From Anoplopoma fimbria (lineage: Eukaryota; Chordata; Actinopteri; Perciformes; Anoplopomatidae), in assembly GCF_027596085.1 (NCBI RefSeq), contig NC_072467.1, positions 3,975,861-4,039,860 on the forward strand: a DNA stretch of 64,000 nucleotides, given 5' to 3'. The notes beneath the pieces are model-generated. The model was not told where the DNA came from and did no database searches. It was given only the letters and a program-made list of their open reading frames with translations. Shown here piece by piece: positions 11,982-34,200 of this stretch. The stretch's first letter is position 1. Every line of letters starts with the position of its first letter. Both the position numbers and the translations under genes were made by a program.

Positions 11982-13260
11982 GAAGTCTGATGTAGATGCT
12001 GAGCCAGAGGAGAGCCCAGGGAGCAGCAGCAGCAGCAGCAGCAGCAGCAGCAGTGGGGCTATAGATGCCCTCTCCACAGCTCCGGCACCAGCCCCCCACC
12101 AGGCCTCTGTGGGAGAGCCAGGACAGAGAGAAGACAGCTCCTGCTCTGATTCCGACAGCCCTTTAGATTCCAGCTCCTGTGAGGAGGAGGAGGACGAGGA
12201 GGAGGACAAAGACGGAGACCCAACTATGTTCTCCTCCAAATTCCTTAGTGGGGCCAACCCCCTCAATGCCATGTCCTCTGCTGTGAATAAGTTTGGTTTA
12301 TTTGGAGATGATGGGGAGGGGGATAAGAATAAGAAAGCAACTTCCCAGCAGGGGGTGAAGCCATCTGGAGAACAGCAGCCAGGAGCAGGCCCAGGCAAAG
12401 GCCCTCAACAGCAGCAGGGGCCACAAAAATCAGGCCAGGGCCTCCCTATGCAAAAGGGCCAACCACCCCCTAAAGAAGGATCACCACAGCTGCATGGGAA
12501 TGGACAGGCAAGACCCCCAAACAAGCCTGGTGGGCAACCAGCTGCTCCAATGGCAGGAACACAGCCTGAAGGCCAGCTTAAAGGAGAGCCTAAAAAAAAC
12601 CAACCTATGGGCCCACCACAGCAAGGTTCACCTAAGCCTGGAGCTCATAAACAGATTGGGATAAGTGGTGCTCAACCAGGTTCTCCCAAAGCATCATCAC
12701 AACATGTTCCAAATAAGACAGGGATGCAACAACAAGGGCCCGCTAAGACTGGTGCACAGCAGCAACAACCTGTAAAGCCTGGGGTGCAGGAGCCCACAAA
12801 GGTTGGCTCACAAAAACCTGGCTCACAGCAAGCGTCACCTGAAGTAGGAAAGCAACACGAAGGGGCACCGAGAATTGGACAACAACAACAACAGGGCTCA
12901 ACCAGACTTTCACAGCAACAACAGGGTTCCCCTAAAGTTGCACAGCAGGGCTCATCTAAAGTGGGACAACAACAGCAAGGCTTAAGGACTACACCCCAGC
13001 AGCAGTCCTCCGACAAGTCTGGGTCTCAACAGCAAGGGCCTAAGGGACCTGGTACACCTGGCCTGTCTCGAGCAGGGTCTTCATCACCGGGACCAACCAA
13101 AGCTGGACCTCAGTCAAAAGCACTAGCTAAGTCCCTTTGCCCAGTGTGTAACACAACAGAACTTAATATGCACACCAAGGAATCGCCGAACCATAAAACC
13201 TGTACACAGTGTAAAACTGAAGTGTGCAGCTTGTGTGGCTTCAGCCCTCCAGACTCTGAT
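11982..13260 (+). CDS. pclo: pclo visible exon 1: Ser/Gln/Pro-rich N-terminal region and first part of zinc finger 1
   Basis: The acceptor (ctgtttctcatgcatttag) gives a phase-2 start, so an upstream exon must supply two bases of the first codon; the donor is gat|gtaagt, phase 0. It encodes 426 codons: a poly-Ser run from an AGC repeat (about 12020-12055), an acidic EEEEDEEED stretch, and a segment [18 protein letters not shown] that matches the mammalian Piccolo N-terminal FLSEVNALSAVSSVVNKF. A long Gln/Pro/Gly low-complexity domain of QQQG(S/P)PK-type repeats follows, and then [12 protein letters not shown]...CTQC...CSLCGF. The last part is the first six cysteines of zinc finger 1 and has the same CNTTEL signature as mammalian finger 1. 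No in-frame ATG precedes 12226 inside the exon. The frame is open back to 11878, but that stretch is intron. Confidence 0.93.
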
Positions 13261-31200: not shown

Positions 31201-34200
31201 AGATCCAGCCTAATGCAGCCCGCCTGTTTGTCAAGAGCATAATTTCCTGACTGCTGTCATTGTGAAGGTTTTGTAATCCAGCTCAGGCTAATCGTAGGGA
31301 GCAGCCTCTCCCACAGCTCTCTGCTTGGGGCTCCTGCTCTTTACTCATAAAACTGATTTAATTAGACAAAAGGATGATGGCGACTTTCCAAACCCTGTGG
31401 CTCTGATGCATTGCTCAGAGACTGTGTGGCTGTGAGGCCGTGACTGGCACTGGAGGGTAATGTGATGGGATTAGGTCTTTTTGTTGACTGAGATTTTATT
31501 TTTATTATTGCAGTCTGATTTATAATTAGTTGAAGGTTAAATAAGTTATCAGATGCAAGGTTGGTGCAGTGGTGCTGTGTAAATGTTTATCTTTGCTGAT
31601 TAGTTTTGGCATTATTTGGTATATAATACACAAATGTTTGCATTCTTCTGTGATTGTTCTGTCCATCCGTTCATCTGTTCTCTCCGTTATCATGCTGAGA
31701 TTTAGGCCTTTGCAATACCAGCACCTGAAGAGGAGTGACAGGCTGGGCCACATTTAGATTGCATAAGAGGGAGAATACAGTAGACCAGCTCAGGGACGCA
31801 CAGCCCTGGCCGTCTGTGAAAACTGCTGTTTTATTCTTCTCTATCAATCCCCTCTTGATAGCTTTTTCAAGTTGTTCCTGTTACAGGGAAGCAAAAGTAG
31901 AGTTGGGATTAAGCCAAAATGTTGCAAATGTCAGTTTTGACAATCCTACTTCTTAACAACCTGTGTATAGTTAAAGTAATTTAATTTCAGTGTGCAAATA
32001 TTTTCAGTGGTTGAAAATGAATTTTGAAATTGATATATATACTTTTTCATTTACATACGGGAATAATTGTATTTGTTTTTCATAGCAAAAATAAGTTCAG
32101 TGCATATAAGCTGCTTCTGATAAGGCCATTGTGGTGGGTCTATAAGATGATCAGAAAAGTAGTAAGAGTTGGAGGTTGTGATGACTAATTTATCATGTGA
32201 ATGGCCTGAATAGTAACATGATTTAGCTGTGTTCAACAGAAGCACATTTCTTGTTATCTGTGCTTACATCCTGCACATGGGAGAGAGTAGAGGGATGTAT
32301 GGGAATTATATCATTGACAGATTTTTAAGGTAGATTATTACGATTTACAGGCCTGTCATTTACCAAAAAAGATTATCCTTAATAACAAACTCTGTTTTAT
32401 AAACTCTGTTGACTGGTTAATAAGCTATACTGAATGTAGATAAACTACTTGCAATACGTGACGACAGTATTGTACGTTTTTGCAAATAAAAATAAATCAC
32501 CCTCAGTAGAATTTAGCTGTTATGTGGACCCAAATAACGATTAGGGTTGAACTTTAAAGGTAAATCAGTGAGGCTGAGCTTGCATAAGATCCCATGAAAT
32601 TGAGGATTTAATGATTTATGGTTAACACGATTATGAGCTTCATGCAAAATGCTGGTGAGGCTGTGTTTGTTACTGTTGGGTGCCAATAGGATTATCATAT
32701 TCCTGACTGAACAACAACAGACTGAACAAAAGCATCTCAGTATCAATCAAAGTGGATGCATCAGTATCAGGTTTCTCCTAAGTCAAGTCTTGCCTTGAAT
32801 ATTTTTCAGTGAGTGAAAGCATCGTACAGCAATAGAGCTAATCAAGCTTTTCTCTGTTTCTGCTACCTCCAGTCTCAGGTTAGAATATGATCATTCATAT
32901 TTTCAGCTAGCTCTATTCACATTGGATTTATGTTATGTTGTAACCCTTAGTAGGACAGAAATTACAAATTACTTCAAGTAATGATATTTTTGTCCAATCA
33001 CGTTTAAATATTCCCTCTAGCCTTGTCTTTCTGTTTGGGAGTATGATCACAACAGGTCTTAGCAGTGTGATATTTGTCCCTGTTAATGGGAAAGTAGATG
33101 AAATGTCCACACGGCTGGATTGTAGGAGGAGGCTTGAACCAGGGTATAACAGAGGGTAGATTACATCACTTATTAAAACTCAACTCAGCACATGAGCCTA
33201 TGAACTATTAATTTACGTCACTACAGCCTGGACCAATGCTAATCTCCAAGACAAAATGTGTTGTTTTAGAGAAACATCCAGATAAATCTCCTTTGTATTA
33301 AGTGCATGAACATTAGTATGCACATGTGGCAATTGTGGTTCAATTATTAAGATATATTTAATGGTTTGTTATACTTAATCTCAAGGAAAGAGCAATTCAA
33401 ATGTAATGGTGTTTTTACTAACAGAATATGTGTGCAATGTAATCTCCTCCGCTGTCCTGTTTATCAGTACTGCTCTCCTGGCTCTGCAGAGGCAGGCGCA
33501 TTGCTGTGATTCGGTCTGCTAGGTTGCTTCAGACACATTGATTTATCTATTGACAGACAGCCTTCTACCTTCCTTAACAGTTCACTTATGGAGCTTAGCT
33601 AAGACTTTTTATTGCAGTCTTACAAGTGTTGTAAATTCTAGTGTAATAGCAGCTAGCATGTTGAGATTAGGAATAACAAGCATATATAAAAAATGTAAGT
33701 CATTGTTGTTATTTCTGTGGGAATGCTTTGGTTATTCGAAATGTCCAGTAATGAAAGCTGGGCGAAGATTTCATTTATATTACTTTGAGTGCTGTTGTTT
33801 TACCAAGCATAAGAGACTGTGTTGTATTATATCATGTTCATGTCAATAATAAAAAGAGTGTTACAAAAGCCACTACTGTGCTGTTCACCTCTAAATTAGG
33901 TCCACTCAAGTCAGACTTTATGAATTAACCCTCTAGGCCTATATTTTGAATGGTGATCTGATGAATAATCTGCAAAATTCTGTTTTAGCACAACCTGAAT
34001 GTATAGTTAAAGCTTTCAATGGTAAATGTGATATACCACAGGTCAAAAATAACTAATTACACCTGAAAGGTGTTTTTATATAAATCTTGTTATAGTGTGT
34101 TTCCTGATCACAAGTTATGTTTGTTTGCTTGATCACAGAGGGAATGGCTGTGCCTGAACTGTCAGACTCAGAGGGCTTTGTCTGGACAGCTGGGAGACTC

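What the first reader, a model, noticed from the sequence alone, without database searches (positions are those of the whole stretch)
11982..34200. Piccolo with eleven tandem zinc fingers instead of two
Reading the cysteines in order gives eleven complete CPLC/CxxC/CxxC/CLxC fingers, none with a lost ligand. Finger 1 (CNTTEL) and the last finger ([10 protein letters not shown], then [12 protein letters not shown]) match the two mammalian fingers. The nine between are extra. Mammalian Piccolo fingers bind PRA1 and VAMP2, so the array could raise valency for vesicle-side partners several-fold. It adds more than 3,000 residues of reach at the active zone.
Basis: partly seen in the sequence, partly recalled or inferred. 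Interest (0 to 1): 0.9.

Follow-up and report, generated by a model that had tools for sequence, protein, structure and literature searches.

The report
Fish Piccolo-b with repeated vesicle-tether modules
This is the fish-specific copy of the synapse protein Piccolo, in which one exon has been copied to ten; that kind of amplification was published in 2012, but each copy also carries the short motif recently shown in mouse to bind vesicle-like membranes, which suggests why the copies might matter.

Summary
The window holds a teleost piccolo gene with eleven complete zf-piccolo fingers, split over an N-terminal exon, ten tandem phase-0 "central" exons and a following exon. The phenomenon is already published: Nonet 2012 (PMC3484663) reported 8-16 such exons in pclob of seven teleosts, with the central exons present in zebrafish transcripts. 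Eleven fingers fall inside that range.

(1) Every central exon (10 of 10) carries one copy of Nonet's "IZF" motif. The same segment of mouse Piccolino is an ALPS motif that binds vesicle-like liposomes (PMC13394108, 2026). The amplified unit is therefore ALPS plus zinc finger. My searches found no paper joining the two. (2) Central exon 9 is a chimera left by a ~1.0 kb tandem duplication joined at a 13-bp imperfect repeat. (3) A 257-base identical tract suggests later gene conversion.

Most likely function: a multivalent synaptic-vesicle tether. This is inferred; nothing was measured here, and my structure model showed no helix at the motif. Species, transcripts and protein were not testable.

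The parts
11982..13260 (+). N-terminal exon of piccolo: three of four CxxC pairs of finger 1 at 13138-13236; tttag before 11982, donor gtaagt after 13260
   Evidence: Pfam zf-piccolo 67.2 bits for the finger half
13749..14555 (+). central exon M1 (269 aa): end of finger 1, IZF/ALPS motif, start of finger 2
15992..16822 (+). central exon M2 (277 aa): end of finger 2, IZF/ALPS, start of finger 3
16990..17886 (+). central exon M3 (299 aa); best match to the published start of green spotted puffer repeat 3
18075..19025 (+). central exon M4 (317 aa)
19233..20162 (+). central exon M5 (310 aa)
20454..21290 (+). central exon M6 (279 aa)
21672..22889 (+). central exon M7 (406 aa)
23195..25273 (+). central exon M8 (693 aa), enlarged by a 66-78-bp tandem repeat at 23573-24680; best match to published fragments of tilapia repeat 9 and puffer repeat 8
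25645..26304 (+). central exon M9 (220 aa): chimera, 5' part like M10, 3' part (IZF and finger half) like M8
26630..27670 (+). central exon M10 (347 aa): end of finger 10, IZF/ALPS, start of finger 11
24777..26805 (+). tandem duplication: unit 24777-25807 and copy 25808-26805, 91.2% identical; join inside CTACAGCAGYAAA at 25808-25820
27671..34138 (+). [quoted passage not shown]
   Evidence: PMC3484663
34139..35104 (+). exon after the array (35104 is the stop of the open frame, not a mapped donor): last CxxC of finger 11 (EWLCLNC) then [12 protein letters not shown]
35653..42666 (+). large open frame taken as the piccolo body from its place and order (frame limits, not mapped splice sites; no family match)
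   Evidence: no Pfam match at E 0.01
52275..63487 (+). fragments of the C-terminal domains on split exons: PDZ (52275 frame, 22.8 bits, just under the 23.2 cut-off), C2 (57987 frame, 26.8 bits) and C2 (63266 frame, 32.3 bits; cut-off 22)

Best explanation
The region is the 5' half of a teleost piccolo b (pclob) gene. Its ancestral central exon, which encodes the end of finger 1, the inter-finger IZF motif and the start of finger 2, is present in ten tandem copies. Because each exon begins and ends in phase 0 inside a finger, any number of copies splices into whole fingers, giving eleven fingers separated by ten IZF motifs on about 3,400 residues of proline-rich, probably disordered linker (exon structure shown at DNA level here). 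The IZF motif is the same segment as the mouse Piccolo/Piccolino ALPS motif, which binds small SV-like liposomes. I infer that the protein works as a beaded tether: each bead offers one weak, curvature-sensing membrane contact (ALPS) plus one finger that could bind PRA1 (and through it Rab3/VAMP2). Ten beads would hold vesicles by avidity while each contact stays weak enough to exchange. Copy number changes by occasional tandem duplication such as the one that made exon M9, and gene conversion may then homogenise exon ends. Shown here: fingers, exon phases, motif repetition, constraint pattern, M9 junction. Shown elsewhere: transcript inclusion in zebrafish, ALPS-liposome binding in mouse. Inferred: expression and avidity tethering in this fish.
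For: Gene identity: 11 of 11 fingers match zf-piccolo, PDZ and C2 fragments lie downstream, a 6.5 kb intron follows the array, and three of four published puffer/tilapia pclob fragments find a clear best match in M3 or M8 (fragments printed in PMC3484663); the fourth, ten residues of puffer repeat 2, tied between M3 and M6 and is uninformative. Transcription: PMC3484663 reports RT-PCR across pairs of exons and RNA-seq with the central exons in zebrafish transcripts. ALPS: 10 of 10 central exons have exactly one stretch meeting my ALPS-like criteria, each at the IZF (best window muH 0.381-0.411, net charge +1, 8-9 S/T/G in 18; mouse motif muH 0.452, 6 S/T/G); shuffled exons gave at least one such window in 97 of 2000. 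The mouse motif VTGKLFGFGASIFSQASNLIST lies between the two fingers; a fragment containing it floats with SV-like liposomes and deleting it significantly reduces this (PMC13394108, passages). Constraint across the ten exons: pN/pS 0.134 in the IZF, 0.242 and 0.253 in the finger halves, 0.642 in the linkers, 45 pairs each.
Against: No transcript or protein of this species was available. My AlphaFold model of M9, with the ten repeats as its alignment, was poor (mean pLDDT 48.4) and showed no helix at the IZF; that is compatible with a motif that folds only on membrane, but it does not support a helix. The ALPS criteria were chosen by me knowing the motif, and the ten motifs are paralogues, so ten hits are not ten independent confirmations. 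The mouse authors call their own evidence for ALPS-mediated tethering indirect. Zebrafish RNA-seq showed some exon skipping in other tissue samples, and no full-length transcript was reported. Synonymous divergence between exons is high (pS 0.47-0.62), so the pN/pS values are rough, and gene conversion can also lower divergence at exon ends.
Confidence: 0.6

Rival explanations
1. The fingers are the selected part: extra Znf2-type finger halves raise binding to PRA1 or to the ubiquitin ligase Siah1, and the IZF motif is carried along because it lies in the same exon.
For: A review table lists PRA1 at rat Znf2 aa 1010-1033, and Siah1 at both fingers of Piccolo and Bassoon (PMC4709825); each central exon supplies one first finger half; the eight cysteines are kept in 11 of 11 fingers.
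Against: The IZF is the most constrained of the four segments compared among the ten exons (pN/pS 0.134 against 0.242 and 0.253 for the finger halves), which is unexpected for a passenger. The difference was not tested statistically.
Confidence: 0.2
2. The copies are nearly neutral: an exon that is phase 0 at both ends and flanked by similar sequence duplicates easily, and a scaffold protein tolerates extra length. Constraint only removes misfolded or frame-breaking copies.
For: Copy number varies from 8 to 16 between teleosts (PMC3484663); M9 arose at a 13-bp imperfect repeat in the linkers; M8 has itself been inflated by a 66-78-bp repeat; linker spacing is not conserved (ALPS spacing 220-702 residues).
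Against: No cysteine ligand or IZF has been lost in any copy, and the paper reports multi-finger pclob in every teleost it examined and independent amplification at least three times.
Confidence: 0.15
3. Exon M9 or the array is an assembly artefact.
For: M8 and M9 share a 257-base identical tract, and tandem arrays are easily misassembled.
Against: The duplicated introns differ by 22 of 321 aligned bases plus 8 gaps, and the copies carry separate differences in both exon parts, which I judge more than haplotype duplication would normally give; open frames and splice signals are intact.
Confidence: 0.03

Closest known systems
Teleost piccolo b (pclob), Nonet 2012, PMC3484663
   Same: Multi-copy central exon, phase 0 at both ends, IZF motif in the exon middle, long intron after the array, PDZ and C2 downstream; percomorph genes there have 8-10 central exons.
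   Different: Seven teleosts were reported (zebrafish, cod, fugu, green spotted puffer, medaka, stickleback, tilapia). [quoted passage not shown] here the extra exon is an 8/9 chimera made by a tandem duplication joined in the linkers. The paper's figures and supplements were not seen.
Mouse Piccolo/Piccolino ALPS motif, Gierke et al. 2026, PMC13394108 (predicted by Drin et al. 2007, as cited there)
   Same: Same segment between the fingers, with the same pattern (TGK-M/L-FGFG...).
   Different: One motif between the two fingers in mouse, ten here; liposome binding was shown for mouse. 'Teleost' and 'Nonet' have no occurrence in that paper's text.
Rabphilin-3A / RIM Rab-effector zinc finger (Pfam FYVE_2)
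   Same: Eight-cysteine finger of four CxxC pairs; 8 of 11 fingers reach the FYVE_2 cut-off; weak PDB match to rabphilin 1zbd_B, E 0.032.
   Different: No SGAW string in the ten central exons or the next exon; SGAWF as a Rab-binding motif is recalled, from no call. UHRF1 chains scored about as well (E 0.035) in the same PDB search.

Membership tests
Teleost piccolo b (pclob) | Tandem central exons, each encoding the end of one zf-piccolo finger and the start of the next, phase 0 at both ends | tested here: met
   10 of 10 exons; 11 of 11 joined fingers
[quoted passage not shown]
   10 of 10
Teleost piccolo b (pclob) | Long intron after the last central exon; PDZ and two C2 domains downstream | tested here: met
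   6,468 bp intron; two C2 fragments above the cut-off, PDZ fragment 0.4 bit under it, and three other frames scanned in the same call without a match
Teleost piccolo b (pclob) | Synteny with SEMA3D/SEMA3A/SEMA3E and GRM3, and a two-finger pcloa elsewhere in the genome | not tested
   Only 12 kb upstream; frames there were listed but not scanned; the own-genome search could not be reached
ALPS motif | S/T/G-rich, nearly uncharged, amphipathic if helical | tested here: met
   with my own thresholds, not HeliQuest's screen
ALPS motif | Helix on, and preferential binding to, curved membranes with packing defects | not testable with these tools
   AlphaFold model of M9 shows no helix there, mostly at pLDDT under 50; binding needs liposomes
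Rab-effector (RIM/rabphilin) zinc finger | SGAWF-type Rab contact motif after the finger (recalled) | tested here: not met
   no SGAW in the ten central exons or the exon after them

The most novel reading that the evidence does not exclude
Teleost pclob amplification is the repeated evolution of a high-avidity synaptic-vesicle tether: selection acted on the number of ALPS motifs, with the fingers as spacers or co-receptors. Vertebrates would then offer a natural dose series (one motif between the fingers in mouse Piccolo, about 8-16 in pclob) for how many weak curvature-sensing contacts it takes to hold and release a vesicle.
Probability: 0.35. Interest if true: 0.65.

Novelty: new member of a known kind. 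Interest (0 to 1): 0.4.

Why it matters
The eleven-finger array by itself is not new. Joining two published facts, the 2012 IZF repeats and the 2026 Piccolino ALPS data, gives the unexplained teleost amplification a testable mechanism, and gives the field natural proteins with different copy numbers of the same tether motif. The M9 junction is a base-level record of how a copy was added, and it lies outside the conserved segments in which crossovers had been proposed.

Tried and rejected
The own-genome search for PF05715 was unreachable six times, so pcloa, synteny and a second locus were not examined, and the species is unknown. The AlphaFold model of M9 was too poor for a fold search, so none was run. 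A PDB sequence search with finger 3 alone gave only weak matches, E 0.032 at best. A first scan for a whole uninterrupted finger found none on the + strand, because the fingers are split by introns, and two cysteine-rich chance frames on the minus strand. An assembly artefact was considered and judged unlikely. Copies outside the array were looked for and not found. That the exons might be alternatives for one two-finger protein was considered; it is unlikely given the zebrafish RT-PCR and RNA-seq in PMC3484663, but untested in this species.

For 'not in print', the searches were: 'piccolo, bassoon, zebrafish, zinc finger' (18 papers), 'pclob, zebrafish' (4), 'piccolo, amphipathic lipid packing' (4), 'piccolo, teleost, zinc finger, duplicat' from 2013 (16, 15 listed), 'Domain Amplification Through Piccolo' (3), 'piccolo, zinc finger, PRA1, VAMP2' (5), and 'pclo, zebrafish, ribbon synapse, ALPS', any three, from 2013 (8). 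PMC3484663 has no occurrence of 'amphipathic', 'ALPS', 'curvature' or 'lipid'. Beyond the two key papers I looked only at passages of PMC4709825 and PMC9437294 (where the ALPS phrase occurs once, in a reference title); the other listed papers were seen as listings only. The library holds open-licence papers only, so absence from it is weak evidence.

Full report
What is there. The + strand carries eleven finger first halves (three CxxC pairs) at 13138, 14430, 16697, 17761, 18903, 20037, 21165, 22764, 25148, 26179 and 27545, and eleven second halves (WLCxxC) at 13758, 16001, 16999, 18084, 19242, 20463, 21681, 23204, 25654, 26639 and 34145. Each finger is split by an intron with gt donor and ag acceptor. 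The ten exons between the first donor (13260) and the last acceptor (34139) are open, multiples of three and phase 0, of 220 to 693 residues, 3,417 in total. All eleven reconstructed fingers keep the eight expected cysteines (F5 has a ninth), and all match Pfam zf-piccolo at 92.7-113.6 bits (cut-off 30); F9 and F10 are identical, so ten distinct sequences were scanned. A PDZ fragment just under its cut-off and two C2 fragments above theirs lie downstream, so the window spans most of a piccolo gene; the exons between were not mapped.

What it is. Nonet 2012 (PMC3484663; parts 1 to 7 of 8 read) describes this gene type. [quoted passage not shown] RT-PCR on 5-day zebrafish across pairs of exons, and RNA-seq of 14-day heads, show the central exons in transcripts; one skipping product was minor, and some skipping was seen in other tissue samples. 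The percomorph ancestor is inferred there to have had nine copies. Of four published fragments, tilapia repeat 9 and puffer repeat 8 match M8 best and the puffer repeat 3 start matches M3 best; the ten residues of puffer repeat 2 are uninformative. So this array looks like the nine ancestral repeats plus one, an inference from three fragments. None of the seven reported gene histories, as told in the text, fits an 8/9 chimera, so the species here is probably none of the seven (inference). I could not identify it.

How the extra copy arose. A unit at 24777-25807 is repeated at 25808-26805 with 91.2% identity. The unit runs from just before the IZF motif of M8, through its finger half and intron, into the 5' part of the next exon. 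M9 is therefore a chimera: 5' part from the M10 lineage, 3' part from M8. At the join, M8 reads CTACAGCAGCAAA and M10 reads CTACAGCAGTAAA, 12 of 13 bases alike and in the same codon register, at places in the two exons that do not otherwise correspond. Nonet proposed unequal crossover within the conserved 5' CxxC, IZF or 3' CxxC segments; this event was joined at a short similarity in the linkers. The duplicated introns differ at 22 of 321 aligned bases plus 8 gaps, the exon parts at 8 of 484 and 6 of 176. The differences are unevenly spread: 257 identical bases (25068-25324 and 26099-26355) cover the finger-coding end of the exon and the start of the intron, a run reached in 1 of 20,000 shuffles of the 45 events. 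Shuffling assumes an even rate and so ignores exon constraint; but the first 111 intron bases hold only 2 of the intron's 30 events, so gene conversion is the simplest reading, though constraint on the exon contributes.

What repeats besides the finger. Every central exon has one copy of the 22-residue motif that Nonet named IZF and speculated might be phosphorylated. Gierke et al. 2026 (PMC13394108; outline and passages), following a prediction they cite from Drin et al. 2007, showed that the mouse Piccolino segment between the two fingers contains an ALPS motif, simulated as VTGKLFGFGASIFSQASNLIST. A fragment containing it floats with SV-like liposomes, and deleting the motif significantly reduces this. 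By sequence that is the IZF motif. In a simple scan (18-residue windows; no proline, at most two charged residues, at least six S/T/G, hydrophobicity and moment at least 0.3), 10 of 10 central exons have exactly one ALPS-like stretch, always the IZF, against 97 of 2,000 shuffled exons with any. The thresholds were mine and were set after seeing the motif. Among the ten exons the IZF is the most constrained of the four segments compared (pN/pS 0.134; finger halves 0.242 and 0.253; linkers 0.642). AlphaFold did not predict a helix there, at low confidence.

How it most likely works. [quoted passage not shown] In pclob the avidity would be built into one chain: ten ALPS motifs 220-702 residues apart, interleaved with eleven fingers that may add PRA1 contacts (PRA1 is listed at rat Znf2). 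This is inference. The main rivals are that the fingers are the selected part, or that the copies are largely tolerated by-products of an easily duplicated exon.

Verdict. The array is real and correctly read, but belongs to a published phenomenon. New here are the IZF-ALPS identification across the array, which I did not find in print in the searches listed under Tried and rejected, and the base-level duplication junction. Interest is moderate.

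Noticed in passing
23573-24680: About 15 copies of a 78-bp unit (73% match; also a 222-bp higher-order unit, 4.1 copies, 94% match) inflate exon M8 with [21 protein letters not shown] repeats; the published tilapia repeat 9 fragment contains a similar repeat.
   Followed up: partly
25068-25324 and 26099-26355: 257 identical bases between the two copies of the duplicated unit, crossing from exon into intron: likely gene conversion tract.
   Followed up: partly
25244-25273 and 26275-26304: Fingers 9 and 10 share a diverged spacer ([10 protein letters not shown]) where most central fingers read GFNPMPN or similar; the cysteines are intact.
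   Followed up: no
18903-18998: Finger 5 has a ninth cysteine (NYCTCTEC).
   Followed up: no
12226-12306: The N-terminal exon encodes [27 protein letters not shown], weakly amphipathic and possibly a further membrane-binding stretch (muH 0.372 in its best window, one proline).
   Followed up: no
M4 (18075-19025) and M9 (25645-26304): A second short motif (FFGFGG-like) precedes the IZF in eight of ten central exons but was not matched in M4 and M9.
   Followed up: no
61405-62006: AGAT microsatellite array of about 150 copies between the two C2-coding frames; also TAGA at 8381-8544.
   Followed up: no
3367-4000: 327-bp tandem duplication (1.9 copies, 82% match) upstream of the N-terminal exon.
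   Followed up: no
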